In this document: positions 1 through 16,082 of the stretch, one piece after another
How the letters are laid out: every line of letters begins with the position of its first letter
Position numbering within the stretch: the stretch's first letter is position 1
From: Gillisia sp. Hel1_33_143
Lineage (GTDB): Bacteria > Bacteroidota > Bacteroidia > Flavobacteriales > Flavobacteriaceae
Assembly: GCF_900104765.1 (NCBI RefSeq)
Contig: NZ_LT629737.1
Coordinates: 682,001 to 746,000, forward strand
Direction: 5' to 3'
Length of the DNA stretch: 64,000 bases
Made by a program: the position numbers and the translations under genes
Notes under the pieces: generated by a model
Told to the model about the DNA's origin: nothing
Seen by the model: the letters and a program-made list of their open reading frames with translations, nothing else
The model's database searches: none

Positions 1-1
1 A

Positions 2-526: not shown

Positions 527-540
527 TTAGCCAAACCTAG

Positions 541-574
541 AAGAGTAATTTTTAGGAATTACTCTTCTTTTAAT
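541..574 (+). terminator. Intrinsic terminator after the TonB receptor
   Basis: A perfect 12-bp stem (541-552 pairs with 559-570) with a 6-nt loop is followed by a short T run. It ends just before the PepSY gene, so that gene is either read through or has its own start. Confidence 0.75.
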
Positions 575-582
575 ATATTATT

Positions 583-1731
583 ATGAATTTTAAGAAGATC
601 GTTTTTCAGGCACATAAGATAATAGGCTTAGTTACAGGTATTATAATTTTTGTTGTTGCCATTACCGGTTGCTGTTGGGTTTTTAAAGAAGAGATTGAAT
701 CCCTAACTAGCAAAGAGATCTATATTGAACCTCAAAGTACTGCAATCTTAACTCCTTCTGAAGTAAAAACTATTGCAGAAGATGTATTTCCAGAAAACAC
801 CATTCATGGTGCTATTTATGGAAAAACCAATGAAAACATTGAAGTAGTATTTTACGACTTGGAGCCAGAATTTTATAAGAGTGTGTTCATAGCTCCGTAC
901 ACCGGAGAGATTCTAAAAATTAATGATCATTTCTCAGGATTTTTTGCTTTCGTTCTTAAAGGTCATACCAGATTATGGTTACCCGCTTGGTTGGGAGAAG
1001 AGATCATTGCTATCTCTGTGTTATTATTTGTTATTATCATGATCTCAGGATTTATTCTATGGTTACCTAAGAAAACTAAAAATTTAAAGCACAGATTAAA
1101 ATTTAATTGGAAAAAGACCACGAGATGGAAAAGAAAGAATTTTGATCTACATTCTATTGTTGGTTTTTACAGCATTCCGCTAGCCATTATATTAGCCTTT
1201 ACCGGACTTGTAATGTCTTATGATTGGTTTCAAAAATCTGTGTATGTAACTATTGGCGGAGAGAAAAATCCAACCTTTTTAATTCCGGAAAATATGAATA
1301 GTCCAGAAAATATTAGTGCGTCCACGTTACCAATTGATCTTTTATTACCAAAGCTTAAAAATGAAAATCCTAAAGCAAAAAGTTTCGAAATACATTACCC
1401 TTATAATGCATCAGAATCTATATATGTAGAAGTTACTAATACAGATGGTATCTATTACGATTCAGATTTTTTATTCTTTGATCAAAACTCCCTGGAAGAA
1501 ATAAAATCTCCATCAATTTATGGCAGGTATGAAGATGCTAAAATTGCAGATAAAATTCTAAGAATGAATTATGATATCCACATTGGTGCTATTGGTGGTA
1601 TTGCTGGTAAGATCTTAGCATTTTTGATAAGTTTAACCATTGCAAGTTTACCTGTAACCGGGATACTACTATGGTATGGAAGAAATTACAAAAAAAAGAA
1701 GAGATCAACTAAAAGTAAACCTATGCTATAA
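583..1731 (+). CDS. PepSY-domain membrane protein (PepSY_TM family)
   Basis: A 382-residue inner-membrane protein of the PepSY_TM family, whose members often sit beside siderophore receptors and are thought to help reduce or release iron in the periplasm. An N-terminal helix (about 13-37, VTGIIIFVVAITGCCWVF) follows the typical AHKIIGLVTG start. Periplasmic PepSY segments occupy about 45-130 and 230-320. More helices lie near 140-160, 195-215 and 340-365, and the tail is lysine-rich. The DLHSIVGFY segment (about 187-195) carries a conserved His of the family. It follows the TonB receptor gene by 56 bp, consistent with a shared role in iron uptake. A second family member lies at 35186-36337. 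Confidence 0.85.
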   Translation: MNFKKIVFQAHKIIGLVTGIIIFVVAITGCCWVFKEEIESLTSKEIYIEPQSTAILTPSEVKTIAEDVFPENTIHGAIYGKTNENIEVVFYDLEPEFYKSVFIAPYTGEILKINDHFSGFFAFVLKGHTRLWLPAWLGEEIIAISVLLFVIIMISGFILWLPKKTKNLKHRLKFNWKKTTRWKRKNFDLHSIVGFYSIPLAIILAFTGLVMSYDWFQKSVYVTIGGEKNPTFLIPENMNSPENISASTLPIDLLLPKLKNENPKAKSFEIHYPYNASESIYVEVTNTDGIYYDSDFLFFDQNSLEEIKSPSIYGRYEDAKIADKILRMNYDIHIGAIGGIAGKILAFLISLTIASLPVTGILLWYGRNYKKKKRSTKSKPML

Positions 1732-1786
1732 TATCAAGATATAGGCATTTGCGAATATTATAACAATGAACGGAAATATTTATCGC

Positions 1787-2767
1787 TTATTCATAATACT
1801 CATATGCGTCTATTATATCTAAGTAGACACCATCAAAACCACACTTTATAATTTTATCTGTATAAGAAGATTCTGCTCCATAAATTATGTTCTGCCAGTC
1901 TTTGTTCCAATATTTCACCTTGTAATTGCCTTCCCATTCCGGATTTTCATTACTCAACCAATCCGGAGTATTTTTTTTCCAAGTACTATCCCAATAATAT
2001 CGGTAAGACTCGGCTTCACCAATAGACATATAAGAAATCACTAATCTACTCCCACCGTTTTGTTTGGTCTTTAATTGCTGAACATCTTCTTTCGTGAAAA
2101 TCTCTTCATTATAATACGCATCTAATATTAGAAGATCATAATTTGTTTTGGAGAGTGCTGTTAGCAGCTGATTTTTAGTGCTAAATCGGTCATAATTCAA
2201 CAGATATAAAAAATTCTTAGCCATCTTTAAGGAGGTGATATTCGAAGAATTTTCATTATTAAGAGTAGTATTTGTATCTGGAATCTTATCTAACTCTCTA
2301 CTTGGTGCAGCAAAGGATATATAATTACTATCATTATTTTCAGCATAAGATTTAATTACCTTCGAGGAAGTCCAGCAATAATCTACCACCAATATCTTTT
2401 TATTTTCAGCATAAGAAATATCCAGCAAACTTTTAAGCTCCTTAGTTACATCAACCGGAGTACGCTTATCATCGTCTTCATAACCATACAAAAGATCTTC
2501 TTGTGCATTGGCGTCTATAGCCTGAAGATAAGTCGTAGCTCTAGGATCTTCCGGCTCTCCATTGCTGGTAATAAGTGCTATTCCATTTTGAGGAATAATC
2601 ATAAAATTAGGAGCCAAACTATGAGAATAAGTACTAATATCAATTACGAAATCTCTCATTTCCTGACGGAAATCTAGATCTTCCAGTGGCATTTCAGGGT
2701 CGTTGCTAGAACATCCAAGATTAATAGTTAACAACAGGGCTAAGAAAATCATGAAAAAGCATTTCAT
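1787..2767 (-). CDS. GH114/TM1410-like lipoprotein (putative endo-glycosidase)
   Basis: A 326-residue lipoprotein: hydrophobic signal followed by NLGCSS, a clear lipobox with Cys19. The mature part is a TIM-barrel of the TM1410/GH114 group (endo-alpha-1,4-polygalactosaminidase-like). Supporting motifs are VVDYCWTS, YMSIGEAESYRYYW and, near the C-terminus, GFDGVYLDIIDAYEYYE, where the strand-end acidic residues would be catalytic. It is divergent from the Pel-like operon, sharing its 127-bp upstream spacer. The operon holds a paralogue (6013-6828), so this enzyme may trim or release the same galactosaminoglycan-like polymer; that role is inferred. The C-terminus ends shortly after the last motif, so the protein is compact for the family. 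Confidence 0.75.
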   Translation of the reverse strand: MKCFFMIFLALLLTINLGCSSNDPEMPLEDLDFRQEMRDFVIDISTYSHSLAPNFMIIPQNGIALITSNGEPEDPRATTYLQAIDANAQEDLLYGYEDDDKRTPVDVTKELKSLLDISYAENKKILVVDYCWTSSKVIKSYAENNDSNYISFAAPSRELDKIPDTNTTLNNENSSNITSLKMAKNFLYLLNYDRFSTKNQLLTALSKTNYDLLILDAYYNEEIFTKEDVQQLKTKQNGGSRLVISYMSIGEAESYRYYWDSTWKKNTPDWLSNENPEWEGNYKVKYWNKDWQNIIYGAESSYTDKIIKCGFDGVYLDIIDAYEYYE

Positions 2768-2827
2768 AAATAAGGTTCTCTGTCAATTAGATGCATAAAA
2801 ACCATTCAAAATTACGCTTTTAAGGAA

Positions 2828-2857
2828 TTGCTTCTTTAAAAAATGATTATATTTTTG
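2828..2857 (+). promoter_or_regulatory. Probable promoter of the Pel-like operon
   Basis: A TTG at 2828-2830 (-33 region) and TATTTTTG at 2850-2857 (-7 region) are separated by 19 bp, matching the Bacteroidota pattern TTTG-N17-20-TAnnTTTG. It lies 37 bp before the ATG of the PelF-like gene. No direct repeat of the type found at 36.6-59.6 kb was seen here. Confidence 0.55.
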
Positions 2858-2894
2858 TAGGAATTGTATCTTCGAAGAATCTTACTAAAAACCT

Positions 2895-4409
2895 ATGGGG
2901 AAGGAAGCAGTGATGTTGGTATTGGAGGGAACATATCCTTATAACGGGGGTGGAGTTTCTACTTGGGCACATTTATTATGTAGTAAGGTGCAAAACGTAA
3001 ATTTCAAATTGTATTCTATAAATGCAAATTTTGAAAATAAGCCTAAATATGATCTAAGTCCGAATATCACGGAAGTGATTCAGGTTCCTTTATGGACCCC
3101 AGATGAGCCTTATGATTATATTAGTTACGGTGATGAATATTATAAAACCGTGGGAAAGAAAGAATGGACTACTACTGCCGTTGTAGAAAAGAATTTTGTT
3201 CCATTATTCTCTAAGCTTCTGAACCTAATTTATGATGAAAATGTAGATGTTAAAGACCTAGATGAGGTTTTTAGAGCGTTATGGTTGTATTTTGAAGACT
3301 ATGACTATAAAGAGACCATGAGAAGTGAGCCGGTTTGGAAGGCCTACAGAGAGGCGATCTCTAAAAATATCGTAAGAGACTATAGCCCGGATGCAGCCTT
3401 AATAGATATTACTATTGGTTTACGATGGATCTATAGATTTCTAATTCCATTGGCCATTACCGACGTTCCAAAATGTGCTATTGCGCACCTAACTCTCTCC
3501 GGTTTCCCAGTTATTCCGGCTTTGATTGCACATTATAAATACGGTACCAAGATAATGCTTACAGAGCACGGCGTATTTATTAGAGAGCGTCTATTGGCGC
3601 TTAATAATTCTGAATATCCGTTCTTTTTAAAACGACTTTTAATACAATTCTCTGAAGCCATAGCAAAATTGGCTTATTACAAATCTGATGCGATTGTTTC
3701 TGTAAATCAATTCAATATAAAATGGGAAAAGATGTATGGGGCAGATCCTAAAAAGATATCTATAATTTATAATGGAATAGATTCTGAAAAATTCAAGCCT
3801 AAACCTAAACCTCAACATCTTCAGAAGATACCAACCGTAGTGGCTGCTGCAAGGATCTTTGAATTAAAAGATGTATTAACCATGATACGATCTTGCGCAG
3901 TTGTAAAGAAAGAAATTCCAGAAATACTATACCTAGTTTATGGTGACGATAAAGCAGTTCCAGAGTACACTCAAACCTGTTTAGAACTTATTGAAGAATT
4001 AGGAGTAGAGGAAAACTTTAGATTTATGGGACCTAGAAATGATTCTCATGAGATTTTCCCGGAGGGAGATCTATCTATCCTAACATCTATATCAGAAGGT
4101 TTCCCGTATACTGTAATAGAAAGTATGAGTTGTGGTGTTCCTGTAGTCTCTACAGATGTGGGTGGTGTAAAAGAGGCACTAGATGAAAACAGCGGATATT
4201 TATGCAAACCTAAAAATGCAGAAGAGATTGGATTACGCATTATAGAATTATTGCAGGATAATGAGAAACGCTTAAATATGGCTAAACATGCCAGACAGCG
4301 GGTTTTGGACAATTTTACCATCTCAAAGTTCATACAACAATATGAAGATATTTACGAATCGCTTTTACAAGAGAATATAGTAGAGAGCAAATACATGGAG
4401 GTGGAATAA
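2895..4409 (+). CDS. pelF: PelF-like family 4 glycosyltransferase
   Basis: A 504-residue cytosolic GT4 enzyme resembling PelF, the polymerising glycosyltransferase of Pel polysaccharide. The N-terminal LVLEGTYPYNGGGVSTWAHL (about 8-27) is the PelF signature. The C-terminal Rossmann half contains VAAARIFELKD and the nucleotide-sugar E-x7-E motif in SEGFPYTVIESMSCGVPVV (about 398-416). In known Pel systems PelF uses UDP-sugars; the sugar used here cannot be read from sequence. It is the first gene of the operon, and its stop codon directly precedes the ATG of the PelG-like gene, so the two are probably co-translated. Family assignment is firm; making true Pel is inferred. Confidence 0.85.
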   Translation: MGKEAVMLVLEGTYPYNGGGVSTWAHLLCSKVQNVNFKLYSINANFENKPKYDLSPNITEVIQVPLWTPDEPYDYISYGDEYYKTVGKKEWTTTAVVEKNFVPLFSKLLNLIYDENVDVKDLDEVFRALWLYFEDYDYKETMRSEPVWKAYREAISKNIVRDYSPDAALIDITIGLRWIYRFLIPLAITDVPKCAIAHLTLSGFPVIPALIAHYKYGTKIMLTEHGVFIRERLLALNNSEYPFFLKRLLIQFSEAIAKLAYYKSDAIVSVNQFNIKWEKMYGADPKKISIIYNGIDSEKFKPKPKPQHLQKIPTVVAAARIFELKDVLTMIRSCAVVKKEIPEILYLVYGDDKAVPEYTQTCLELIEELGVEENFRFMGPRNDSHEIFPEGDLSILTSISEGFPYTVIESMSCGVPVVSTDVGGVKEALDENSGYLCKPKNAEEIGLRIIELLQDNEKRLNMAKHARQRVLDNFTISKFIQQYEDIYESLLQENIVESKYMEVE

Positions 4410-6026
4410 ATGAGTCCGGATCAAATAAAAGCGGTAGCATCGCTAATTATACAGGTTAAAGAACGAAACGGTAAGCCCGTAAACCTAAATGTAATAATTG
4501 CCACTATAGAATCTTTAGGGATACGAGAAATCGATGCTCAAAATGATTATGGTTTTAAAAGTATCTCTCACCTTGCAGAGTACATTTACAAAACCTTTGG
4601 GCTTAGAGCCTATAATAATCTTAAGAACGATAAACAACGTATTGCAGAAGCTAAGAATTATAAGAAAATAGCAATAGCTTCTAACTTTTCTTCTCGAGCC
4701 TTAAAGCAATTTGTAGTTGAAAATGGCTCTGGTATAGCAAACTTTTTTCCTGTTTCAATTCAAGTGATATCTATTGTACTGTTTGGCATATCGCTCTGGA
4801 CCTTTTCAAAATTTAATAACCTCCAATCTACCGCTGTAGTTTTAGGTGTAATAATTGGATTTATTGCAACAGGTGGGTTTGTTCAGGTTATTGGGAAACA
4901 GGTGTCCTATTACTGGTATAATGAAGATTTCTACATGGCCCGGCATTCGGTAATCAAGATCATAAAATATGGTACACAAACCATCTTTGCAATATTCCTG
5001 CTATCTGCAGTACTCAACTTTATAACCCCACTTTATTCTTTTAGTTTTGTTATAATTTGCTTTGCCTATGCTTTATTAATTGGGTTTCTCCTTTTAGTAT
5101 TAGCTCCTCTATATGCGTTAAAGCAACGTTGGATGATCACGGTGAGTATTACCTTAGGAACTGCTTTGGCTTTAGCATTGCATTTTACTACCAACATACC
5201 TGTTTACATTATACACTGGAGCAGTATTCTTTTTGCAGCATTAATCTCTGTATTTTATCTGCAGTGGTTTTTAAAACATACACTAAAGAGGAAAATATCC
5301 CGGTCTATCGTAGAACCAAAGGTTACCCTGTCTATCTACAGGAATTTTAATTATTTTCTATATGGGATATTCTTTTTCCTTTTTATATTTATGGACAGGA
5401 TCATAGCCTGGTCTTCTTCTACAAATCGTGAGATTCCCTATTTATTCTACTACGAAAAAGATTATGAGATTGGAATGGATCTAGCCATTCTATTCTTTTT
5501 CTTATTGGGGGGAGTTCTGGAATATAGCATCACATCGTTTAACAGACATTTAGATTATTATCAGCTTATTCACAGCTATTCTAAATTTAAGAAATTCAAT
5601 TCTAAGATGATAGAATTATATTATAGAAATTTAAGATTGTTACTTATAACCACTGTAGGAGTTGCCATACTTTTATATCTTATTATGACGCAACCTTGGG
5701 GATACAGCGCCGGATTTGATGAAACCCTATCTGAGCTCAGTATTAAAGTAAGCATTTTAGGTAGTTTAGGATATATTTTCTTAACCATTGGTGTTCTTAA
5801 CACCTTATATCTATATACTCTTAATCAAAATAGAAAACCCCTAATAGCTATAATTGCAGCACTAATAACCAACTTTACATTTGGTGTGCTTTGCAGCAGG
5901 TTGATATCTTATGAATATGCCGTAATTGGCATGATGTTAGGATCTTTAGTATTTATGATCGTTACATTTAGATACACCAAACGTTTTTTTAAAAATCTGG
6001 ACTATTACTATTATGCAGCGTATTAA
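4410..6026 (+). CDS. pelG: PelG-like polysaccharide exporter with extra N-terminal domain
   Basis: A 538-residue polytopic membrane protein with about twelve helices, matching the PelG family, which moves the polymer across the inner membrane beside PelF. Supporting segments are FLFIFMDRIIAWSSS, YYEKDYEIGMDLAI and LLGGVLEYSITSFNRH in the second half. Residues 1-100 are soluble and include SLGIREIDAQNDYGFKSI, an extension not expected in classical PelG and possibly a small winged-helix-like fold. The start abuts the PelF-like stop with no gap, and the 3' end overlaps the next gene by 14 bp, so the operon is tightly packed. Confidence 0.8.
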   Translation: MSPDQIKAVASLIIQVKERNGKPVNLNVIIATIESLGIREIDAQNDYGFKSISHLAEYIYKTFGLRAYNNLKNDKQRIAEAKNYKKIAIASNFSSRALKQFVVENGSGIANFFPVSIQVISIVLFGISLWTFSKFNNLQSTAVVLGVIIGFIATGGFVQVIGKQVSYYWYNEDFYMARHSVIKIIKYGTQTIFAIFLLSAVLNFITPLYSFSFVIICFAYALLIGFLLLVLAPLYALKQRWMITVSITLGTALALALHFTTNIPVYIIHWSSILFAALISVFYLQWFLKHTLKRKISRSIVEPKVTLSIYRNFNYFLYGIFFFLFIFMDRIIAWSSSTNREIPYLFYYEKDYEIGMDLAILFFFLLGGVLEYSITSFNRHLDYYQLIHSYSKFKKFNSKMIELYYRNLRLLLITTVGVAILLYLIMTQPWGYSAGFDETLSELSIKVSILGSLGYIFLTIGVLNTLYLYTLNQNRKPLIAIIAALITNFTFGVLCSRLISYEYAVIGMMLGSLVFMIVTFRYTKRFFKNLDYYYYAAY

Positions 6027-6828
6027 ATTTATAATGATGTGCATTGTTTGCTTTTCCATATTTAGCTTTTCTAAGTGCAAGAATGATATTGAGAAAAAAG
6101 TTTTAGTAAACTATGGAGATTTTGATCCGGAAACTGTAAAAGGTTATGATTATCTAATCATAGAAAGTGCACATTTTTCTGCAGAAGATATTAAATTATT
6201 GAAAATGCACAACCAAAATGTGCTGGCTTACGTAAGCTTTGGGGAAGTGAATGAATCTGCCTCTCATTACAGCGATATTTCAAAATACACCTTGTCTAAA
6301 AATGAGGTTTGGAACAGCTACGTTTTAGATTTAGCTAATAAAAATACGAGACAAGCAGTGTTTAAAATTGTGAAGAACAATATTGAAAAAAAAGGTTTTG
6401 ACGGTCTGTTTTTAGACAATATAGATAATTATACTTCATTTGGGCCAACCCCTTACAAACTAGCTGCTTTGGTTAGTTTTTTAAAAGAGATCAAAGAAAA
6501 ATATCCAACAACTCACCTCATGCAAAATGCGGGACTTGAGGTTTTGCCTAAAACAAAAGATCTAATAAACTCTATTGCTGTAGAATCTATAGCAACAGAT
6601 TATAATTTTGAAACTTCTACTTATAAACTAAGAGAAAGCAAAGACTTTAAAGAAAGATTAGATCACCTTAATATGACAAGTCAGCAATTTGGATTGCCTA
6701 CCATAGTAATTGAATACGCAGATACTAGAGATCTGGCCAAAGAAGTACTTAAACGTATGAGTAGCTACAAGACAAACCTTTTTATAGGTGAAATAGAACT
6801 TCAAAACATTCCGCGTTATGAACCATGA
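6013..6828 (+). CDS. PelA hydrolase-domain-like glycosidase (TM1410/GH114-GH166 type)
   Basis: A 271-residue exported TIM-barrel protein corresponding to the N-terminal hydrolase domain of PelA but encoded alone. After a signal segment ending in SFSKCKND (Cys23 may be lipidated, although Lys before Cys is unusual) come LAYVSFGEVNES (about 73-84) and GFDGLFLDNIDNY (about 130-142), the two family motifs with acidic strand-end residues. In PelA this domain cleaves alpha-1,4-N-acetylgalactosamine polymer. It overlaps the PelG-like gene by 14 bp and the next gene by 11 bp. The deacetylase partner domain is two genes further on. Role as processing hydrolase is inferred from family and operon. Confidence 0.75.
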   Translation: MQRIKFIMMCIVCFSIFSFSKCKNDIEKKVLVNYGDFDPETVKGYDYLIIESAHFSAEDIKLLKMHNQNVLAYVSFGEVNESASHYSDISKYTLSKNEVWNSYVLDLANKNTRQAVFKIVKNNIEKKGFDGLFLDNIDNYTSFGPTPYKLAALVSFLKEIKEKYPTTHLMQNAGLEVLPKTKDLINSIAVESIATDYNFETSTYKLRESKDFKERLDHLNMTSQQFGLPTIVIEYADTRDLAKEVLKRMSSYKTNLFIGEIELQNIPRYEP

Positions 6829-8782
6829 TATCCTATTTTGGTTTAGCGCTACGTTGCTGGGTCCATTAAGAATTTTCCTTTTTTTCCTGATCTTCTATGT
6901 TTTCTATAGACTATCTGCTGTAAAACTACCAGAACAAACAGGTATAGAATTCTTTGTTCCCAGGCTAATCATGCTTCTATCTGTTGCCATTATTGGAAGT
7001 TTGTTCTTAACACAGATAAATGGTTTTGACACCATGCTCATTTTAATGATCACTTCGCTCTTTTTTATGCTGAGTTTTCTAAATCTTAAAAAAGGTAAAC
7101 CCCTAAAAAAACAGCTTCAAAAGGTTTATAGCAGATTTATAATTTATGTAGTGAAACGGTTTGAGAATAATAGGGCTTTGGTAGAAAGTAAGAATTTTCA
7201 AAAAAGAAAGCCTGAAAGTAAAGATTCTAAGAATATCAAATTCTGGCAAATAGGTATCGCCACTTTTATATTCGCAGCGATCTTAGTGAGCAAGTATTAT
7301 TTCTTAAAATATGATAATTATTTATTGAGTTCTTCTTGGTATGAAGATCTAGATAAAATGAAGGCCATTGCAGATCAAACCTGGTTTAGCATTGTTACAG
7401 ATTCTATGGGTAGCTATGCTATAATCTCTCTTTACGCTAAAATTACAGGCTTAAGTGATATGTTGGCGCTTAGCAATTCTGGATTTATCGAGTCTGCGCT
7501 GTTGGCAGTAATTATATATTGGGCGCTTTATAAAATTACTCACAAACACGGGCCTGGATTACTTTCTGCACTTGTTTTTGGGTTTGGTTACTCCATTATT
7601 CCTTTAAATATAGATTCATTATTGCAGCATAAAACGGTATTCCTTTCTATGTCTCTTGCGTTGCCGTTAATGATCTTTAATATGTATCCTACAAGTTTCA
7701 GACAGAAAAAAAGGATGTTCTTTAATTGGAGTCTTGTATGTATTTTGGCGTTGAGTTTTTTAAACTTATTTATTGCGCTAGGGATCTTGTTACCATTTTT
7801 TATTATCTGTTACCTTATCAATCCTTCAGAAAAAAGAGCCTATAATAAAGAATCTATACAGGCCTATTTCTTAAGTGCTTTAATTATGGCTGGCATCTAT
7901 GCTATCGCATCTTTTTTTCTAGAAAGAAATTTTATAGATGTCTTTATGTCTAAGCTGGCATCTTATGATTATTATACATATACCCCAAACCTTATTATTC
8001 CTTTTTCTGAATTAGTTTGGTATTATCTTGGAGCGACACTTTTCTTAGGTTTAGTTTCAGCATATTTAATTTTTAAAAAATCAGAACGTTGGAGATCTAT
8101 ATCTACCATTCTTATCTTTGTGATCTTTTTATTGACTATATATACAGTAGAAGTTCCGTTTTTTGATGAAGACCTTTTGCTTCAGGTTATTTCTGTATTC
8201 CTGCCTATAGTATTAGGGCTCTTATTCTATTTGATATATCTGCCCGTGCGAGCCCTATTTAAAAAGGTGAGCATCTCAAATTCAGTTGAAATTAGCCTCG
8301 CAATGGTTCTTGCTTTTGGTATTTTTTATATGAGTAAAAATGATGCCAGCGCAACTCAAGGCGTTTTTAGCTCTAAAAGAGATGTGCTTCAAGCGTATTT
8401 TGAAATTGAGAACAATAGACTTCCCTATTCTTATGCAGTGGTTAATACTTCTAAAAATAGTCGTGTTAGCCGTGGAGGGCATTACTTTTTGAGTTATTCA
8501 GATTTTAATAGTGCCTATCTTCAAAAAGATGCGCTTTTCCATAAATATAAAGAACAGAAAGAATATTTAAAAACACATCCCGAAGTGATATTACCATCAA
8601 GTGTTTTTGTATTTGTTCCAAACAAGCGTAATGCACATGTTCCTGATGAGGTTTTTAAAAGTCTGCAAACTCTTAGAAAACGTGGAAGAGAAATGAAACC
8701 TATCTATATAGGAGAATCTATAAAAGTTTTTGAGATCGTGAATATTCCGAATTCTAGTAAAATAAATGATTTATTGCTGTGA
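6818..8782 (+). CDS. Polytopic membrane protein, GT-C-like, of the Pel-like operon
   Basis: A 654-residue inner-membrane protein. Two N-terminal helices (about 7-30 and 47-85) are followed by a basic cytosolic stretch (90-140), then about ten more helices to residue 520 and a soluble C-terminal domain (520-654). The loop after helix 3 reads SSSWYEDLDKMKAIADQTWF, an acidic extracytoplasmic loop as in GT-C glycosyltransferases, although no certain catalytic DxD is seen. It sits where Pseudomonas-type clusters have PelD and PelE, yet no GAF, GGDEF or TPR segment is visible, so it is not a recognisable c-di-GMP receptor. It overlaps neighbours at both ends. I do not recognise a named family; function is open. 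Confidence 0.7.
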   Translation: MNHDILFWFSATLLGPLRIFLFFLIFYVFYRLSAVKLPEQTGIEFFVPRLIMLLSVAIIGSLFLTQINGFDTMLILMITSLFFMLSFLNLKKGKPLKKQLQKVYSRFIIYVVKRFENNRALVESKNFQKRKPESKDSKNIKFWQIGIATFIFAAILVSKYYFLKYDNYLLSSSWYEDLDKMKAIADQTWFSIVTDSMGSYAIISLYAKITGLSDMLALSNSGFIESALLAVIIYWALYKITHKHGPGLLSALVFGFGYSIIPLNIDSLLQHKTVFLSMSLALPLMIFNMYPTSFRQKKRMFFNWSLVCILALSFLNLFIALGILLPFFIICYLINPSEKRAYNKESIQAYFLSALIMAGIYAIASFFLERNFIDVFMSKLASYDYYTYTPNLIIPFSELVWYYLGATLFLGLVSAYLIFKKSERWRSISTILIFVIFLLTIYTVEVPFFDEDLLLQVISVFLPIVLGLLFYLIYLPVRALFKKVSISNSVEISLAMVLAFGIFYMSKNDASATQGVFSSKRDVLQAYFEIENNRLPYSYAVVNTSKNSRVSRGGHYFLSYSDFNSAYLQKDALFHKYKEQKEYLKTHPEVILPSSVFVFVPNKRNAHVPDEVFKSLQTLRKRGREMKPIYIGESIKVFEIVNIPNSSKINDLLL

Positions 8783-11700
8783 GAATGATAAGAGGTTATA
8801 GAATAATCATTGTGTTAACTACGGTATTTTTCACATTTTTAAGTTGTGAGAAAGATGTAGAAAATGAAATTGTTTTTAGTAAAGAAACGGCAGAAGTAAG
8901 TTACGAGGCATATAGTGATGATCCTTTGGTAACATTTCTGGTAGACCCAAAAGAGTCTACTAGTATGGATTATAAGAATAATCTTCAAAAAACACTTAAT
9001 TACTCTAAAATCCCATTTAGAGCCATTAGTCTGGAGAAATTTAATGCTGATCCAAATTTAGGAATTAACAATAAGGTAGTAGTAATTACTGAACCTCAGG
9101 AGCTAAGTGATAATGCTTATAATAAAATACTTCAATTTATAGATAATGGAGGAATGTTATTGCTACCAACTATTAGTGCCGGAGAAAAATTTGAGTTCTT
9201 AGCCGGAGTTCTGGCAAATACGAGTAGAATAACAAATACAGAAGCTAAAGGATATCTTTCCAAAGATGATATTCTCCCAGATTTCAAAAATAAAGCCTTT
9301 AAAATAGGAACCGTTCTTTATGGAATTTCTAGAGAGAATTTTTCTCCAAATATTAAAGTAATAGCTACCTCTAGTAATGATCTGGAGTATCCCGCTATTG
9401 TTCAAAACGATCTAGGAAACGGGAAAGTGATTTTAATGAACACTTCTCAAGCTTTTGAAAAACGAGATAGAGGTTTGTTATTTAGCATGCTCTTAAAAGG
9501 ATTGGAGGGAATGCCTTATTCTGTAGCCAACACCAAAAGTATTTTTTTAGACGATTTTCCAGCACCACTTTATGATATGGCCATGGAACCGGTACATTCT
9601 GAAATGAATGTTACTCAAGCCCAATTTTATACAGACCATTGGTGGCCAGATATGGTGGAATTAGGAGAAGAAGAAGGTCTTGTTTATTCTGCTTACGTAA
9701 GTTTTGATTATCGCAATCTTACGGTACCTCCTTTTACTTTTGAAGAATGGGAACAATCTAAAAAACGGGTGGAGGGAAAAAGTCTTTCCGCGTCAGATTG
9801 GCTTATGAATAAGATTAAGAAATCTAAACACGAGTTGGCTTTCCACGGGTACAACCACGTTTCTCTCTTAAAGAACGATTGGCCTAGTTATGACTTTATG
9901 GTGCTGGGATTAAAAGCAGCAAAAAAGAGATGGGAACTAAAAACCTATGGAAAACTTCCAGTAACTTATGTTCCACCTTCAAACAATATAGATAGCTTAG
10001 GATTTGCAGCTCTGGCTAAAGTTTTTCCTTCCATTAAATATAACGCAAGTTTATATTTAGGCGATTTCAAAGAAGGTGGAAATAGAGAATATGATTTAGA
10101 ACCTTATAATGATCATTTCTTCAATTTTCCACGAGTAACCAGTGGTTATGTTATGGATGTTGCTAATCAATACAATCAGCAAAATTTATATTTATACACC
10201 GGTATCTGGTCTCATTTTATCCATGCAGATGATATTTATCAAATTCCGGCAAACACCATAAATTACGAAGAGGTATACGAATTCAGGAATCAGGATAGAT
10301 TAGGCTGGAAAATATCTGAGGATGGCTCTGAAGGATTATTTCCTCGCTTTAAGTCTTATATCCATCAAACCAAAAGATTATATCCATTAATGAGATTTTT
10401 TGCAGTTAAGGATGCTGCTAAGATTGCCCAAGATTGGAGAAAATCCACTTATACTTATAGCTTTAATAAAGATGAAGTAAAAGTGAAATTAAGCATGGAG
10501 CAGACAAACTGGTGGTTTGTTTATGTAAGTTCCAAAAATAGCGCTTTAATGGAACAATCTTTTAAAAAGCGATCTTATGAATTTAGTAAAACAGCATTTC
10601 ATAAAGGTAGCCTCTACATGATAAAAACCCCTGCTGGAACTATAAGTGCTCCTCGAATTTTCGGTAAAAACAATAACTCTAACATCTCTTTAATAGAACA
10701 ATATGAGCAATACCTCTCTTTAGAAGAACTACCAGTACAGGCCAATTCTTCAGAAAACATCAAACAACTTAAAGCTAGTATTAAAAATTCCAATGCTTAT
10801 AATGAAAGTAATTGGACAGAACTGTTCCAATACTTAAGCTGGAATAATAGTCAGGCAGAGATCTGGCCTTTATTAAAAGAAAAATACGAGAATAGTAATA
10901 AAGGTCTTAGGTACATTTATTTAGCTGAAAAATTTGTAAAAGGTAGCGATTATCCGGATTTGCAAACTCGCAAATATTGGATGACGGAGAAAATAGCTAT
11001 TTCTAATGACCCAAAAACCAAAATGGACTATATAGGATATTTTGGGGAGCAAGACGAGGTTAAATTAAGTGCGGCTGAATTAAAACAGTTAATTAAAGAT
11101 GCAGATCCAGATAATAGAACCTCTTTTATAGAGATTTTAATTAAGCGCTATCCTAAAGAGGCTATGTCCATATTTAATGTGTCTGAACCTTGTGAAACTT
11201 ATAAAAACTCGGGAGAGATCATAAGCTGGTTCTATGCCGATCATAACAATTTTGAAAAAGCGATAGCCTGGTCTAATTGTTCAAATTCTATAGATAAAGT
11301 AACCATAGACCAGTGGTATCTTAAAACAACAGATGTTGAGAAGATAAAAGCACGAGATTATACTTTATATATAAATTGGTTATTGATTAATGAACCATCT
11401 AAAGCTACAGCAGCGCTTATAGATATAGACCCGTGCAGTCCTAACTATAAATCTATCGCATTAGATATTGCATACGCCTTCGGAAACCAGGGGAGTTATC
11501 GTAAGGCTATTGAATGGAGCAATTGTACTACAGAATTTCCGGTGCTTACTAAATTGTTCTGGCACGCACAATTGAAGCAAACTCAAGAAATAGAGGCGCT
11601 TTATGCCAATACAAAACCTTCAAATGAAAAATTTGATGAAATTCAAGCTTTTTTAGTTTCTTACTATATTTCCGAAAAGAATTACAAAAAAGCCTGGACG

Positions 11701-12741
11701 CTTACTAATACCATGGCAGCATCAGCCAAAAAAGAGGAGCTTAGAACACAATTCAATAAAGACGTGCTTTATCTAGATCGCAGTCTTCAAAAAGAACTTC
11801 TACTAGAAACACCAGAACTATTTGATGCACCTATTGCAGCATCTATAAGAAAGAAAATAAGAATAACAGAAAGCGATTTTATTCAGTTAAATGGAATTAT
11901 GGTGGCAGATAGGTTAGATCCTAACTATTATGAAGCCAAGCTGGGTTACGGACTTCGAGATCGTAAATACAATACACACATCTTTAGCGCAGTAAAAAAT
12001 CAGGCATACAGAGTGCCTGTGGTTAATGTTGATAAAGAAAATATAGACAGAGGTTTATATGGGTTGGATTATCAATTTCAAACTGCTATAAAACCAGGAA
12101 AATTTAATTATTCCGGAGGTGCGAGGTTGGAATTTGACACTGCAGACAATGTATATTATCACTTACGAGCTGGAGCTTCTATAAGTCATGACAGCCTTTA
12201 TAGCTCTGCAGCAGCATTTAGAAGGCCAGCATTAACTGGTGGGGCTTATGGATTAAAAATTTACCAAACTCAACTTAACATATACGAAGAACTAAGGATC
12301 AATAAGATCTTTAGGTCTACCTTATATTTAGAAGGAAATCATTATGATGATGATGGCACTGTAGATGCTACAGCAGCTTTGGCTTTTTACGGGAAGGTAT
12401 ACCAAAATGGAAGGTCTTCAATATCAGGTTTTACAGAAATTGCCGGTTTGTTAGGTAATAACGATAAAAGCAGCGGTTATCCATATTGGACATTAGAGGA
12501 AAGGCTATATGGAGGTATTGGTGCAGGATATTCTTTTAATATTCCTAAAAAAGACATTAATATAACATTAGATGCAGCTTACTTTCTAGACACTTTTTCT
12601 GATAACTTTCAGCGGTACCGAGGAAGTTTCAGCTACCCTTTTTATGATAAGCTCTATTTTAGCGGTAATCTGGAATTCTACACCTTGAAGAACTTTTATT
12701 CTAATAATTTTGGAATAGGGCTTAAATATTATTTAGATTAA
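8779..12741 (+). CDS. Deacetylase (DUF2194) fused to helical repeats and outer-membrane barrel (PelA-PelB-like fusion)
   Basis: A 1320-residue lipoprotein with signal and lipobox FLSC (Cys23). Residues 50-250 form an alpha/beta domain (glutamine-amidotransferase-like or PelA middle-domain-like). Residues 252-600 are a DUF2194 polysaccharide deacetylase with IFLDDFPAP (Asp258-Asp259) and HGYNH (His356, His360), giving the Asp-His-His metal site of CE4-type folds. About 690-1040 is TPR-like. About 1065-1320 is an amphipathic beta-barrel ending GIGLKYYLD. In Pseudomonas these functions are split between PelA and PelB. It overlaps the previous stop as GTGA; an ATG two codons later (8785) could equally be the start. 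It probably deacetylates the polymer and exports it across the outer membrane (inferred). Confidence 0.8.
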   Translation: MRMIRGYRIIIVLTTVFFTFLSCEKDVENEIVFSKETAEVSYEAYSDDPLVTFLVDPKESTSMDYKNNLQKTLNYSKIPFRAISLEKFNADPNLGINNKVVVITEPQELSDNAYNKILQFIDNGGMLLLPTISAGEKFEFLAGVLANTSRITNTEAKGYLSKDDILPDFKNKAFKIGTVLYGISRENFSPNIKVIATSSNDLEYPAIVQNDLGNGKVILMNTSQAFEKRDRGLLFSMLLKGLEGMPYSVANTKSIFLDDFPAPLYDMAMEPVHSEMNVTQAQFYTDHWWPDMVELGEEEGLVYSAYVSFDYRNLTVPPFTFEEWEQSKKRVEGKSLSASDWLMNKIKKSKHELAFHGYNHVSLLKNDWPSYDFMVLGLKAAKKRWELKTYGKLPVTYVPPSNNIDSLGFAALAKVFPSIKYNASLYLGDFKEGGNREYDLEPYNDHFFNFPRVTSGYVMDVANQYNQQNLYLYTGIWSHFIHADDIYQIPANTINYEEVYEFRNQDRLGWKISEDGSEGLFPRFKSYIHQTKRLYPLMRFFAVKDAAKIAQDWRKSTYTYSFNKDEVKVKLSMEQTNWWFVYVSSKNSALMEQSFKKRSYEFSKTAFHKGSLYMIKTPAGTISAPRIFGKNNNSNISLIEQYEQYLSLEELPVQANSSENIKQLKASIKNSNAYNESNWTELFQYLSWNNSQAEIWPLLKEKYENSNKGLRYIYLAEKFVKGSDYPDLQTRKYWMTEKIAISNDPKTKMDYIGYFGEQDEVKLSAAELKQLIKDADPDNRTSFIEILIKRYPKEAMSIFNVSEPCETYKNSGEIISWFYADHNNFEKAIAWSNCSNSIDKVTIDQWYLKTTDVEKIKARDYTLYINWLLINEPSKATAALIDIDPCSPNYKSIALDIAYAFGNQGSYRKAIEWSNCTTEFPVLTKLFWHAQLKQTQEIEALYANTKPSNEKFDEIQAFLVSYYISEKNYKKAWTLTNTMAASAKKEELRTQFNKDVLYLDRSLQKELLLETPELFDAPIAASIRKKIRITESDFIQLNGIMVADRLDPNYYEAKLGYGLRDRKYNTHIFSAVKNQAYRVPVVNVDKENIDRGLYGLDYQFQTAIKPGKFNYSGGARLEFDTADNVYYHLRAGASISHDSLYSSAAAFRRPALTGGAYGLKIYQTQLNIYEELRINKIFRSTLYLEGNHYDDDGTVDATAALAFYGKVYQNGRSSISGFTEIAGLLGNNDKSSGYPYWTLEERLYGGIGAGYSFNIPKKDINITLDAAYFLDTFSDNFQRYRGSFSYPFYDKLYFSGNLEFYTLKNFYSNNFGIGLKYYLD

Positions 12742-12756
12742 GAGAACGCATAAAGT

Positions 12757-13149
12757 ATGAACAGAATAGATCTACCATACCATCTAATAATTCCTGCTCT
12801 TATTGCTGTATTTGCCCTTCTTGCTATATCCTACAAAAGAAAGAGCATGTTCTTTAGTGGAAAGCGCAAGTGGTTATGGATTGGTTTAACCGTGTTCTTT
12901 AGTTTCTATTTAATAATAGTTGGTGCAGCCGCATATTCTGATATTTCGTTGAAACTCACTTTGCTTGAATTTGATTTGAATGGGGATAATTTTTTTAGCG
13001 GGACTGAAATTACACCTCAGCAAAAGATCGCTATGCAAAAGGTAAGTTCTGATACCGCAAGAAACTTTTCTGTTATTACCGGTTTTATTATTTCAGGAAT
13101 TTTGGCTTTTGTAGTATTTCTAATTGGTAAAACCTCTGAAAGATTATAG
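12757..13149 (+). CDS. Small membrane protein with EF-hand-like loop
   Basis: A 130-residue protein with three predicted helices (about 8-23, 35-57, 103-123). Between helices 2 and 3 lies DLNGDNFFSGTE (about 73-84), which fits an EF-hand loop with acidic or Asn ligands at positions 1, 3, 5 and Glu at 12. Topology places this calcium-type loop on one side of the membrane next to the exporter genes. The 15-bp gap after the barrel fusion gene suggests it is the last gene of the Pel-like operon. Function unknown; calcium binding is an inference from the loop. Confidence 0.65.
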   Translation: MNRIDLPYHLIIPALIAVFALLAISYKRKSMFFSGKRKWLWIGLTVFFSFYLIIVGAAAYSDISLKLTLLEFDLNGDNFFSGTEITPQQKIAMQKVSSDTARNFSVITGFIISGILAFVVFLIGKTSERL

Positions 13150-13227
13150 AAAAAAAGAACAATTCAGAACTTAGGGTAGCTCTCGGAAATCTATAAATTA
13201 TCAGAATTCTTAACTATAGCAACCCTA

Positions 13228-14259
13228 TTAGTCCTTTTTTTGAATTAGATACGCAAAAGCCTCCATACCCTTAGTATGATCAAAAATTACTTTGAGAACA
13301 CCTATAATTGGTAAGGCTATAATGGCACCTACAATTCCCCATAATGCAGAGAATAGAATAACACCAAAAACGGTGATAAATGGATTTAAATTCGTTTCAT
13401 CTCCAATAATCCAAGGTGTAAGTATATAATTTTCTAATAATTGAGCAGCAGCAATTACGGCTATCACAATAAGTGCAGGAGTTGCACCAGCATATAGAAA
13501 TGACAATAATACTGCAACACCACCTCCTATTATATTTCCAACATATGGAATGATAGAAAACAAAGACGCAAAAAGTGCTAAGAACAGCGCATATGGAACA
13601 GAACCTAAAATAAACCCTAAATAATAGATCCCAAATAAAAGAATCATGATTTTTCCTTTTCCGAAAAGATAACTTGTAATTATTTTTGATGAGTTGCTAA
13701 GAAGAGATCCCATAGCTTCAGAATTAGAGGTCAATTTTTTAAAAAAGCGGATAAACATGACCTTTTGCATTAATAGAAGAACTATATAGATGAAGATTAC
13801 AAAAGATTGTGAAAGAAGATTAATAATAGAAGATAGAAATACTCCGGCAACACTTTCCATTTTTTGAACTAGCCTCTTATTATTGTCTATATAATCTTTA
13901 TAATCCCAATTTAAATTCTGATTTGCCCACTGTGAAAGATCATTTAATTTACCGGTGGCCTTTTCTTTAATTGTTGGCCAATCTCCAGCCATGGTATTGA
14001 TCTGAGAACCTATTAGCCATGTGAATAGAAAAAATATTACTAGCATTAAAATTACAGAGAGTGTTATAGCCAACCAATTTGGTACTCCCCACTTTTTCAT
14101 TTTCTTGGCAGGTTTATCTAAAAGAACTGCAATAATAGCTGCTATAAAAAGAGGAAGTAGAAGGCTGGAACCTATGTAAAGTATTGCAGAGATGCTTCCA
14201 AATATAAGTATTGCTTTAATTAGATAGCTGCCAGAAATACTTATTTTAGAATTACTCAT
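13228..14259 (-). CDS. AI-2E family transporter
   Basis: A 343-residue membrane protein of the AI-2E (YdiK/PerM-like) family. It has the usual N-terminal pair of helices (about 12-60), a third helix at 63-85, a soluble segment (90-150), and a C-terminal helix block with FSIIPYVGNIIGGGVAVLLS, ENYILTPWIIG and NPFITVFGVILFSALWGIVG, the family's signatures. Members range from autoinducer-2 exporters to Na+/H+ antiporters, so the substrate is not known. It is convergent with the Pel-like operon, with 78 bp between them. Confidence 0.85.
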   Translation of the reverse strand: MSNSKISISGSYLIKAILIFGSISAILYIGSSLLLPLFIAAIIAVLLDKPAKKMKKWGVPNWLAITLSVILMLVIFFLFTWLIGSQINTMAGDWPTIKEKATGKLNDLSQWANQNLNWDYKDYIDNNKRLVQKMESVAGVFLSSIINLLSQSFVIFIYIVLLLMQKVMFIRFFKKLTSNSEAMGSLLSNSSKIITSYLFGKGKIMILLFGIYYLGFILGSVPYALFLALFASLFSIIPYVGNIIGGGVAVLLSFLYAGATPALIVIAVIAAAQLLENYILTPWIIGDETNLNPFITVFGVILFSALWGIVGAIIALPIIGVLKVIFDHTKGMEAFAYLIQKKD

Positions 14260-14513
14260 ATGATGAATTTTGAAATGGAAGACTTAATTTGATCTTCATT
14301 CTTAAATGTAAATTTAGCCGATTTTTTTAATCTAGACTCCTAGGTGTTTTGTTAAATCTAAAAGCATTGCGCTCTCCTTGAAATTCACAAAAGCACTTTA
14401 ATTAAAAACGAATAATTTTGTATAAGGATAAGGAAATTTTAGAGTTTTTGAGGAGCTAAATTTTATTAAATTAGTGAACGATGCCTCGATCTAACTAAAG
14501 AAGTCTACAAAAC

Positions 14514-16082
14514 ATGGATACAGAATATGATTATGTAATAGTTGGTAGTGGTTTTGGAGGTTCTGTAAGTGCTCTTAGATTATCAGAAAAAGGTTATAAG
14601 GTTCTGGTAATAGAAAAAGGAAAATGGTTTAAAGCAAAAGATTTCCCTAAAACCAATTGGAATTTTAGAAGATGGCTTTGGATGCCGAAATTAAAATTTT
14701 TCGGTATTATGAAACTATCAATCTTTAGACATATTGCAATTATTTCTGGTACTGGTGTAGGCGGTGGATCTTTGGTTTACGCCAATACCTTACCAACTCC
14801 CAAAACAGCGTTCTTTAATTCTGGAAGCTGGAAAGATCTAGAAGCGTGGGAACATACATTAAAACCTTTTTACCAGGAGGCACTTAAAATGTTAGGTGCA
14901 GCACAAAATCCAAAATTATTTGATGGCGATCTTGGGCTCCAAAAAGTTGCAGAAGATCTAGATATCAAAGAAAATTTTGAAGCTACGCGAGTTGCAGTAT
15001 TCTTCGGAAAACCAAATATTACCCAAAAAGACCCCTACTTTAATGGCGAAGGGCCAGATAGGTCTGGTTGTACCTTTTGCGGTGCATGCATGACGGGCTG
15101 CAGATATAATGCAAAGAACACCTTAGATATGAATTACCTTTATCTAGCTCAAAAAAACGGAGCAGAGATCATAGCAGAAAATGAGGTTATAGATGTGCAA
15201 TCGATCCATGCCAAAGATGGTTCAGAAGGATATGAGGTTTTAACAAGAAGTAGCACTAAATGGCTGAATCAGAATAGAAAGATCACCACAAAGGGGGTAA
15301 TCTTTTCTGGAGGAGTTCTTGGAACTGTGAAATTGCTGCTAAAACTAAAAAAGAAATCGCTACAGCTACTATCTAATAAAGTAGGTGAAGATATAAGAAG
15401 TAACAATGAAACATTAATAAGTGTATCTGGGTTGAATAAGGAAAAGAATTATTCTAGAGGTGTGGCAATAGGAAGTATTTTAAATACAGATGAGAATAGT
15501 CATCTAGAGATCTGTAGGTACGGAGAAGGATCAGACGCATGGAAGCTAGCACATTTACCTTACGTAACCGGTTCTAATGTAGCTTCCCGTATTTTCAAAA
15601 CGCTGGTAAAACTCTTTAAAAATCCTATAGACTATTTTAAGATATATTTCGTGAACGGTTGGTCTAAGAATACCGTTGTGCTACTTTTTATGCAAACTTT
15701 AGATAGCACTCTAAAATTTAAAAGAAATATTTTTGGGCATATGTATTCTACGGTAAGTACCGGGAAGGCTCCTACTCCATTCATTCCGGAATCTATACAA
15801 CTAGCAAAGGCGTATCGCAAAGCAATAAATGGAGTTAGTACATCCTTCGCTTTAGCAACATTAGCAGGTATACCATCTACTGCACATATATTAGGGGGTG
15901 CCGTTATGGGAGAAAATATAGATACAGGTGTTATAGATAAACATAATAAGGTTTTTGGTTATAAGAATATGTTTGTAATAGATGGCGCCATGATCTCATC
16001 TAATCCAGGAGTGAATCCTTCACTAACCATCACAGCAATAGCAGAGCATGCTATGGACCAAATTCCTGCAAAGACTCTTTAA
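14514..16082 (+). CDS. GMC-type FAD oxidoreductase (cholesterol-oxidase-like)
   Basis: A 522-residue flavoprotein. The N-terminal FAD dinucleotide motif is VGSGFGGSVSALRL (about 10-23), followed by SGTGVGGGSLVYANTLP (about 79-95), which is typical of ChoD-like GMC enzymes. A four-Cys segment CTFCGACMTGCRYNAKNTL (about 189-207) is characteristic of this subgroup and may form a metal or disulfide site. The C-terminus has AHILGGAVMG and VIDGAMISSNPGVNPSLTI, the substrate/FAD-binding end. Substrate (sterol, polyol or other alcohol) cannot be told. It is monocistronic, followed by a hairpin at 16104. Confidence 0.8.
   Translation: MDTEYDYVIVGSGFGGSVSALRLSEKGYKVLVIEKGKWFKAKDFPKTNWNFRRWLWMPKLKFFGIMKLSIFRHIAIISGTGVGGGSLVYANTLPTPKTAFFNSGSWKDLEAWEHTLKPFYQEALKMLGAAQNPKLFDGDLGLQKVAEDLDIKENFEATRVAVFFGKPNITQKDPYFNGEGPDRSGCTFCGACMTGCRYNAKNTLDMNYLYLAQKNGAEIIAENEVIDVQSIHAKDGSEGYEVLTRSSTKWLNQNRKITTKGVIFSGGVLGTVKLLLKLKKKSLQLLSNKVGEDIRSNNETLISVSGLNKEKNYSRGVAIGSILNTDENSHLEICRYGEGSDAWKLAHLPYVTGSNVASRIFKTLVKLFKNPIDYFKIYFVNGWSKNTVVLLFMQTLDSTLKFKRNIFGHMYSTVSTGKAPTPFIPESIQLAKAYRKAINGVSTSFALATLAGIPSTAHILGGAVMGENIDTGVIDKHNKVFGYKNMFVIDGAMISSNPGVNPSLTITAIAEHAMDQIPAKTL

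What the first reader, a model, noticed from the sequence alone, without database searches (positions are those of the whole stretch)
2895..13149. Rewired Pel-like exopolysaccharide operon without a c-di-GMP receptor
PelF- and PelG-like genes are followed by a free PelA-type hydrolase, a GT-C-like membrane protein, a deacetylase-repeat-barrel fusion and an EF-hand protein, with overlapping or nearly abutting ends. No PelD (GAF/GGDEF) or PelC is present. Known Pel systems use PelD to sense c-di-GMP; this one must be controlled otherwise. It looks like a Bacteroidota-specific Pel variant.
Basis: partly seen in the sequence, partly recalled or inferred. Interest (0 to 1): 0.85.

Follow-up and report, generated by a model that had tools for sequence, protein, structure and literature searches.

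The report
PelD-free Pel-type slime operon
A five-gene set conserved in Bacteroidota looks like a machine that makes and exports a Pel-like biofilm sugar polymer without the c-di-GMP switch protein that well-studied Pel machines use, and with an extra sugar-transferase-like membrane protein.

Summary
Window 2895-12741 holds PelF, PelG, a free PelA-type (GH166-like) hydrolase, a GT-C-fold membrane protein, and a lipoprotein fusing a PelA_DA/CE26-type deacetylase to a helical solenoid and a 16-strand export barrel. The EF-hand protein (12757-13149) has no relative in the fetched loci and is probably a bystander. The same five genes, in order, occur in 70 of 80 named loci; the other 10 are contig-truncated, ORF-calling or split-gene cases, or carry an inserted gene. 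Catalytic residues of PelF, hydrolase and deacetylase are invariant. PelD is not detected in this complete 3.48-Mb genome, nor is any GGDEF or EAL protein. GGDEF is absent from all 80 genomes holding the named loci, against 157 of 296 sampled Bacteroidota with one; this is largely a lineage effect. Deeper-branching relatives carry an HD-domain protein in the operon; flavobacterial ones carry no conserved regulator. No PelE or PelC relative was found, but those tests are weak. Best reading: a PelD-free Pel-type machine with deacetylase and outer-membrane exporter fused and a GT-C protein added. Product and GT-C role are unproven. New variant of a known kind.

The parts
1787..2767 (-). Divergent lipoprotein of the TM1410/GH114 type, apparently a circular permutant; probable accessory polygalactosaminidase-like hydrolase
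   Evidence: TIGR01370 180.5 bits, just under its cut-off of 181.25; PF03537 51.2 bits; matches TM1410 with its halves swapped; colinear 36% match to the polygalactosaminidase of a Cetobacterium pel cluster; a GHdiv-type gene near the cassette in 24 of 80 loci
2768..2894 (.). Divergent intergenic region with a Bacteroidota-like -7 element TATATTTTTG at 2848-2857 upstream of pelF
   Evidence: 4 matches in the window, mean 1.07 expected by chance; similar string upstream of pelF in several relatives in a poor alignment; the consensus TAnnTTTG is recalled, not tested
2895..4409 (+). PelF, GT4 glycosyltransferase (proposed polymerase)
   Evidence: NF038011 185.6 bits; DUF3492; EX7E glutamates and H225 invariant in 81 of 81 sequences of 450 aa or more
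4410..6026 (+). PelG, MOP-type inner-membrane exporter, with an N-terminal extension of about 80 residues not covered by the PelG model
   Evidence: PF16933 51 bits, profile position 34 at residue 114; consensus motif in the extension over 89 aligned sequences; a Cetobacterium PelG starts at profile position 1
6013..6828 (+). Free PelA-type hydrolase (GH166-like)
   Evidence: best PDB match PelA 5tcb E 5.6e-23, TM1410 only about 1e-4; the glutamate that is alanine in 5tsy aligns with E191, invariant in 77 of 77 sequences of 240 aa or more
6818..8782 (+). GT-C-fold polytopic membrane protein with extra N-terminal helices
   Evidence: AlphaFold2 pLDDT 85.8, pTM 0.87; Foldseek E 2e-5 to 1e-4 to STT3, PglB and ArnT at TM-scores of only 0.30-0.44; VIA Z 20.9, rmsd 8.8, 433 aligned; D166 in 75 of 77, D450 in 77 of 77
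8779..12741 (+). Lipoprotein fusion: PelA_DA/CE26-type deacetylase (about 30-590), helical solenoid (about 640-1030), 16-strand outer-membrane barrel (about 1034-1318)
   Evidence: profile A4 matches 9zau (B. cereus PelA_DA) E 1.6e-73; D258, D259, H356, H360 invariant in 73 of 73, Cys23 in 71 of 73; model of 575-1320 pLDDT 89.7, pTM 0.58; VIA Z 22.9 BcsC, 22.7 PgaA, 21.5 PelB, next family 14.9
12757..13149 (+). 130-aa membrane protein with one EF-hand-like loop; likely a bystander
   Evidence: no relative in any locus held; no family above its cut-off

Best explanation
This is a Pel-type, synthase-dependent exopolysaccharide machine that works without PelD and c-di-GMP. PelF polymerises a sugar chain (by homology poly-alpha-1,4-GalNAc from UDP-GalNAc) at the cytoplasmic face. 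PelG carries it across the inner membrane. In the periplasm a free GH166-like hydrolase trims it. An outer-membrane-anchored lipoprotein then removes acetyl groups with its CE26-type domain and passes the chain along its own helical solenoid into its own 16-strand barrel, so the PelA-PelB partnership is covalent. A GT-C-fold membrane protein, constant in the cassette, most likely adds a sugar from a polyprenyl-phosphate donor on the periplasmic side, or has taken over the PelD/PelE scaffold role. Control is then by transcription, or through the N-terminal extension of PelG; deeper-branching relatives have an HD-domain protein in the operon. Shown computationally: gene content, order, domain identities, conserved catalytic residues, no PelD-family or GGDEF match. 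Inferred: product, path of the chain, GT-C role, mode of control.
For: PelF and PelG pass curated cut-offs. The hydrolase prefers PelA over TM1410, E191 invariant in 77 of 77. The deacetylase matches B. cereus PelA_DA at 1.6e-73, an enzyme shown to de-N-acetylate GalNAc oligomers and to be essential for Pel (PMC13254593, passages); its metal-site motifs are invariant here in 73 of 73. A DUF2194 protein also sits beside pelF and pelG in Cetobacterium and matches at 7.5e-59. The barrel groups with BcsC, PgaA and PelB well above other porins. Five-gene order in 70 of 80 loci. The GT-C profile and PelG occur in the same 3 of 60 relatives. No GGDEF in own genome or 80 others; PelD 0 of 10 genomes with a positive control that rang. 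Related clusters carry HD, GAF-HD or GAF-SpoIIE proteins.
Against: No biochemical evidence for the polymer. In P. aeruginosa, B. cereus and S. intermedius each pel gene, pelD included, is needed (passages), so a PelD-free machine has no precedent there. A published survey already lists Gram-positive loci in which only pelF and pelG were recognised (figure legend, PMC7112194), and Pfam's PelD model misses B. cereus PelD (passage): a missing PelD can be a detection limit. No sequence-level link to Gram-negative PelA, PelB, PelD, PelE or, with a 3-row profile, PelG in single-sequence comparisons. PelG is a distant member (51 bits). The absence of GGDEF is largely lineage-wide. GT-C is a fold assignment only, with low TM-scores.
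Confidence: 0.72

Rival explanations
1. The cassette makes a different polymer: PelF and PelG relatives were recruited with a GT-C branching enzyme, so the product is a branched or non-GalNAc glycan that is not functionally Pel.
For: PelF is only 26-27% identical to PelF of Paraburkholderia and Cetobacterium, PelG is weak (51 bits), and a GT-C gene is constant. The Balneolaceae-type loci carry a second PelF-like GT4 beside pelF (in L104 by position only).
Against: Both processing enzymes belong to Pel/GalNAc families: hydrolase nearest PelA, deacetylase nearest PelA_DA, and the divergent gene is of the TM1410/polygalactosaminidase type.
Confidence: 0.25
2. An undetected, strongly diverged PelD/PelE pair acts in trans, so control is conventional in architecture though not in ligand, as with streptococcal PelD lacking GGDEF.
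For: Streptococcal PelD lacks GGDEF and is still needed (passages); Pfam misses B. cereus PelD (passage); the searches made here for GAF-type PelD used one sequence.
Against: The Cetobacterium GAF protein in the PelD position finds nothing in 4 cassette genomes while finding itself; no PelD-family match in 10 genomes; no gene is conserved beside the flavobacterial cassettes across genera.
Confidence: 0.14
3. The GT-C protein is a pseudo-enzyme scaffold that replaces PelD/PelE rather than a glycosyltransferase.
For: PelD and PelE are not found, and PelF must be recruited to the membrane in P. aeruginosa (PMC8461298, passages); the protein carries N-terminal helices outside most of the GT-C matches.
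Against: Acidic residues at loop positions expected for GT-C catalysis are kept (D166 75 of 77, D450 77 of 77; the position argument is recalled).
Confidence: 0.3

Closest known systems
P. aeruginosa-type pelABCDEFG
   Same: PelF, PelG, PelA-type hydrolase, a deacetylase, and a helical-repeat plus 16-strand exporter
   Different: No PelD found, no PelE or PelC relative found (weak tests), hydrolase free, deacetylase of the PelA_DA type fused to the exporter, added GT-C, no GGDEF in the genome
B. cereus / streptococcal / fusobacterial pelDEA_DAFG
   Same: PelA_DA-type deacetylase, separate and often divergent hydrolase gene, PelF and PelG; streptococci also lack c-di-GMP control; DUF4832 neighbours occur in both
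   Different: Those keep a PelD (even without GGDEF) and PelE (passages); the GT-C and barrel profiles find nothing in the Cetobacterium cluster proteins tested
BcsC / PgaA / PelB polysaccharide secretins
   Same: Helical repeats followed by a 16-strand barrel (VIA Z 21.5-22.9)
   Different: Here preceded on the same chain by a lipid-anchored deacetylase
GT-C glycosyltransferases (STT3/PglB, ArnT, DPY19, PMT)
   Same: Fold over residues 133-645 (Z up to 20.9, rmsd 8.8), conserved loop acids
   Different: No sequence family or PDB match, extra N-terminal helices; among 60 relatives present only in the 3 genomes with this PelG

Membership tests
Canonical Pel operon (pelABCDEFG) | PelF glycosyltransferase | tested here: met
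   NF038011 185.6 bits against cut-off 100
Canonical Pel operon (pelABCDEFG) | PelG exporter | tested here: met
   PF16933 51 bits against 29; no match of the 3-row profile to a Paraburkholderia PelG
Canonical Pel operon (pelABCDEFG) | PelA hydrolase domain | tested here: met
   PelA 5tcb E 5.6e-23; separate gene
Canonical Pel operon (pelABCDEFG) | PelB TPR plus barrel exporter | tested here: inconclusive
   Fold yes: 9h80_M Z 21.5, rmsd 4.9, 322 aligned; sequence no
Canonical Pel operon (pelABCDEFG) | PelC lipoprotein ring | tested here: inconclusive
   One Paraburkholderia PelC finds nothing in 4 cassette genomes; single-sequence search is weak; no conserved small gene in the five-gene cassette
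Canonical Pel operon (pelABCDEFG) | PelD c-di-GMP receptor | tested here: not met
   PF16963 in 0 of 10 genomes, control positive; no GGDEF in own genome
Canonical Pel operon (pelABCDEFG) | PelE | tested here: inconclusive
   GT-C profile does not match a Paraburkholderia or Cetobacterium PelE-position protein; no genome-wide PelE search was made
Canonical Pel operon (pelABCDEFG) | Product is an alpha-1,4 GalNAc/GalN polymer | not testable with these tools
   needs chemistry
Gram-positive pelDEA_DAFG | PelA_DA deacetylase (CE26) | tested here: met
   9zau E 1.6e-73, profile positions 14-547
Gram-positive pelDEA_DAFG | PelD with TM and GAF | tested here: inconclusive
   No relative of the Cetobacterium GAF protein in 4 genomes; single-sequence search
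GT-C glycosyltransferase | GT-C membrane fold | tested here: met
   VIA Z up to 20.9 over 433 residues; Foldseek E 2e-5 but TM 0.38
GT-C glycosyltransferase | Catalytic acid and polyprenyl-phosphate donor use | tested here: inconclusive
   D166 and D450 conserved; activity untested

The most novel reading that the evidence does not exclude
A Pel-type polymer is made by a minimal two-membrane machine that needs no second messenger and no PelD/PelE: PelG's N-terminal domain recruits PelF, a polyprenyl-phosphate-dependent GT-C enzyme decorates or anchors the chain in the periplasm, and one lipid-anchored polypeptide both deacetylates and exports it. This would be a distinct branch of Pel biology in c-di-GMP-free Bacteroidota.
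Probability: 0.32. Interest if true: 0.82.

Novelty: new variant of a known kind. Interest (0 to 1): 0.64.

Why it matters
The three Pel systems whose genetics I saw described (P. aeruginosa, B. cereus, S. intermedius) need PelD (passages). A natural PelD-free version gives a direct way to ask what PelD and PelE really do and how a Pel-type synthase is switched on without c-di-GMP. The deacetylase-exporter fusion offers a single-chain version of the PelA-PelB partnership for structural work. The constant GT-C gene predicts an additional modification of the polymer. The carriers are largely flavobacteria, many of which live on surfaces and particles (recalled).

Tried and rejected
EF-hand protein as a system part: rejected, no relative in the loci held. 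RNA switch upstream: no Rfam match at gathering score in 1-16000. GT-C as a diverged PelD or PelE: no profile match. Barrel fusion linked to PelB, and deacetylase linked to P. aeruginosa-type PelA, by sequence: not seen, so only the PelA_DA link and the fold link are claimed. PelG against Paraburkholderia PelG: hhalign with the 3-row profile found nothing, so PelG rests on the Pfam match. PDB search with the GT-C profile: 0 matches. Plasmid-borne Pel-like clusters of Thermus, Deinococcus and Streptomyces (3 of 11 hits opened) were looked at as possible closest kin: the GT-C, barrel and deacetylase profiles found nothing there; their deacetylases match Agd3 families above cut-off in Thermus and Deinococcus and only below it in Streptomyces, so they are a different arrangement. 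tblastn of PelG against plasmids: no match. A first regular expression for the hydrolase glutamate was too loose and was replaced by an alignment count.

Limits and dropped rows: of 14 PelG-family places in 296 Bacteroidota genomes, one is the window and I read the neighbourhood of 8 others; the 5 left out were partial matches. One of those read (L106) holds no cassette. The named-locus scan kept 80 of 96 relatives and was seeded with patterns from three flavobacterial PelGs, so it says little about other phyla. Alignments used 50 of 77 (GT-C), 46 of 73 (barrel) and 31 of 73 (deacetylase) rows, window included. PelD_GGDEF search had no ringing control; one search repeated it with one. Completeness of the 80 genomes is not told. 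The upstream alignment is poor and proves no promoter. Literature: the listings (20 of 23 shown; 2 of 2; 20 of 28; 8 of 15; 12 of 84; 6 of 6; 10 of 17; 7 of 7) were judged by title and abstract start; none describes a Bacteroidota pel cluster of this kind. Subscription journals are mostly not held. All papers cited were seen as passages only.
Full report
What is there. Window 2895-12741 carries five same-strand genes that abut or overlap: pelF, pelG, a free hydrolase, a 654-residue membrane protein and a 1320-residue fusion. PelF and PelG pass curated cut-offs. The genome is one contig of 3,475,961 bases. One relative given as the same genus (G001) has a contig of exactly the length of the Gillisia limnaea DSM 15749 contig that holds L011, so the window probably comes from that neighbourhood of Flavobacteriaceae (inference).

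Conservation. A scan with a PelG alignment returned 96 relatives, of which 80 named loci were kept. By record title they are mostly flavobacteria, with Roseivirga-type and Balneolaceae-type members; two MAG titles (L034 Bifidobacterium breve, L068 Limnohabitans) name other phyla and look mislabelled. The scan was seeded with patterns from three flavobacterial PelGs, so it cannot show that the cassette is absent elsewhere. Seventy of 80 have the five genes contiguous, in order and on one strand. Of the other 10, L013, L025, L026 and L051 end at a contig edge; L067 has a split hydrolase ORF and a contig edge; L016 has a 73-aa ORF between the last two genes; L035 and L066 hold the hydrolase by tblastn although my ORF filter had dropped it; L079 and L082 carry one extra gene between pelG and the hydrolase. 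Median gaps in the 70 are 11.5, -14, 5.5 and 1 bases. The GT-C profile and PelG occur in the same 3 of 60 relatives.

The hydrolase. Its best solved relatives are PelA (5tcb, E 5.6e-23), with TM1410 at only about 1e-4. The glutamate that is alanine in 5tsy aligns with E191, which is invariant in 77 of 77.

The fusion protein. A profile of residues 22-600 finds 9zau at 1.6e-73. This is B. cereus PelA_DA, a metal-dependent de-N-acetylase that founded CE26 and is essential for Pel there (PMC13254593, passages). D258, D259, H356 and H360 are invariant in 73 of 73, and the lipoprotein cysteine is kept in 71 of 73. A DUF2194 protein also stands in a pel cluster of an annotated Cetobacterium record, next to a GAF protein, and matches the profile at 7.5e-59. 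Residues 575-1320 were modelled (pLDDT 89.7, pTM 0.58): a helical solenoid and then 16 strands. The barrel aligns with BcsC (Z 22.9, rmsd 3.4, 290 aligned), PgaA (22.7, 3.3, 269) and PelB of the PelBC complex (21.5, 4.9, 322); the next family is at 14.9. No sequence-level match to a Paraburkholderia PelB was seen.

The membrane protein. The model (pLDDT 85.8, pTM 0.87) is a GT-C fold from about residue 133 onward. Foldseek gives STT3, PglB and ArnT at 2e-5 to 1e-4, with TM-scores of only 0.30-0.44; VIA gives Z 20.9 over 433 residues at rmsd 8.8. D166, right after the first GT-C helix, is kept in 75 of 77 and D450 in 77 of 77; that such loop acids are catalytic in GT-C enzymes is recalled. About 130 N-terminal residues lie outside most of the matches. 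The Pel-paper passages seen do not mention a GT-C gene; one paper in the listing (PMC11841053, on type IV pili, not opened) holds both terms.

The missing arm. Own genome: 0 GGDEF, 0 EAL, 0 PelD. PelD_GGDEF rang on the Paraburkholderia pel record but on none of 10 Bacteroidota genomes with a cassette. GGDEF is absent from 50 of 50 and 30 of 30 genomes behind the 80 named loci; the completeness of those is not told. As control, 157 of 296 sampled Bacteroidota have GGDEF, but none of the 157 is listed as the window's family or order and 19 listed family members lack it, so the absence is largely a property of the lineage. A Cetobacterium GAF protein in the PelD position found nothing in 4 cassette genomes; nor did a Paraburkholderia PelC. 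Both are single-sequence searches and weak. Pfam's PelD model is known to miss B. cereus PelD (passage), and a published survey lists Gram-positive loci with only pelF and pelG recognised (figure legend), so undetected PelD remains a rival.

How it may have come about. Of 14 PelG-family places in 296 Bacteroidota, 8 neighbourhoods besides the window were read. Six of them (L098-L100, L102-L104) share with L082 a gene of about 310 residues (receiver domain in L082), a second PelF-like GT4 (in L104 by position only), pelF, pelG, a protein of about 535 residues, then hydrolase, GT-C and fusion; L079 has the same from the second GT4 on. The 535-residue protein has an HD domain in L082 and no predicted membrane helix in L079, L082, L099 and L104; the others are its homologues by BLAST. 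No GAF domain was detected in its N-terminal part in L082. L101 has a rearranged cluster with a GAF-HD protein, distantly related to it, and a GAF-SpoIIE protein. L106 has no cassette. The genomes of L098-L100 and L102-L104 are not among those with GGDEF; that of L101 (G349) has one. So deeper-branching relatives keep signalling-type proteins in the cluster, while the flavobacterial form has none that is conserved: its flanking genes vary by genus, with a helicase, a DUF4832/DUF4874 gene, a carboxylase, RecQ, a peptidase and others.

PelG extension. Over 89 aligned sequences PelG begins with about 80 residues whose consensus holds a motif around GIR..D...DyGf. They have no Pfam match above cut-off, and the Cetobacterium PelG starts at profile position 1. 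This cytoplasmic domain (inference) is a candidate for taking over recruitment of PelF.

Working model and literature. In P. aeruginosa, PelD, PelE and PelG recruit PelF, and c-di-GMP binding to PelD activates the complex (PMC8461298, passages). Streptococcal PelD lacks GGDEF yet is needed for aggregation (PMC12345266, passages), and a PelD shortened to TM and GAF goes with pel-dependent biofilm in S. thermophilus JIM8232 (PMC7112168, passage). PelA binds the TPR region of PelB, and BcsC and PgaA need no lipoprotein ring (PMC12141448, passages). The present cassette goes further: no PelD found at all, the deacetylase covalently joined to the exporter, and a GT-C added. Shown: content, order, domains, invariant catalytic residues, absence results with their limits. 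Inferred: polymer identity, transport path, GT-C role, control. None of the papers in the listings, judged by title and abstract start, describes such a system.

Verdict. I file it as a new PelD-free variant of Pel-type systems, not as a canonical Pel operon, because the PelD criterion was tested and not met.

Noticed in passing
1787-2767 (-): The divergent GH114-type lipoprotein looks circularly permuted relative to TM1410: its residues 202-325 match TM1410 46-164, and its residues 35-67 match 177-209 (weakly). The Cetobacterium pel-cluster polygalactosaminidase is colinear with it and permuted relative to the operon hydrolase.
   Followed up: partly
L023 18353-19999 and 24 other loci: A DUF4832/DUF4874 gene with a Por secretion tail (domains tested in L023) has members in 25 of 80 loci, typically as the convergent downstream neighbour; DUF4832 is also an accessory gene of streptococcal and clostridial pel clusters (PMC7112168, passage).
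   Followed up: partly
L079 11609-13210, L082 9928-11553, L101 15288-16838: HD-domain proteins (with GAF in L101) sit inside Pel-type clusters of deeper-branching Bacteroidota; the L079 and L082 genomes have no GGDEF, so their ligand is unclear.
   Followed up: partly
L079 3260-7075: A second, fragmentary-looking PelF/PelG/hydrolase/GT-C set lies just upstream of the intact one.
   Followed up: no
4410-4650: PelG N-terminal extension with a consensus motif and no Pfam family above cut-off.
   Followed up: partly
12757-13149: Small membrane protein (three predicted helices) with one EF-hand-like loop, found only in the window among the loci held.
   Followed up: partly
L101 13262-14812: GAF-SpoIIE phosphatase-type gene inside the Pel-type cluster.
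   Followed up: no
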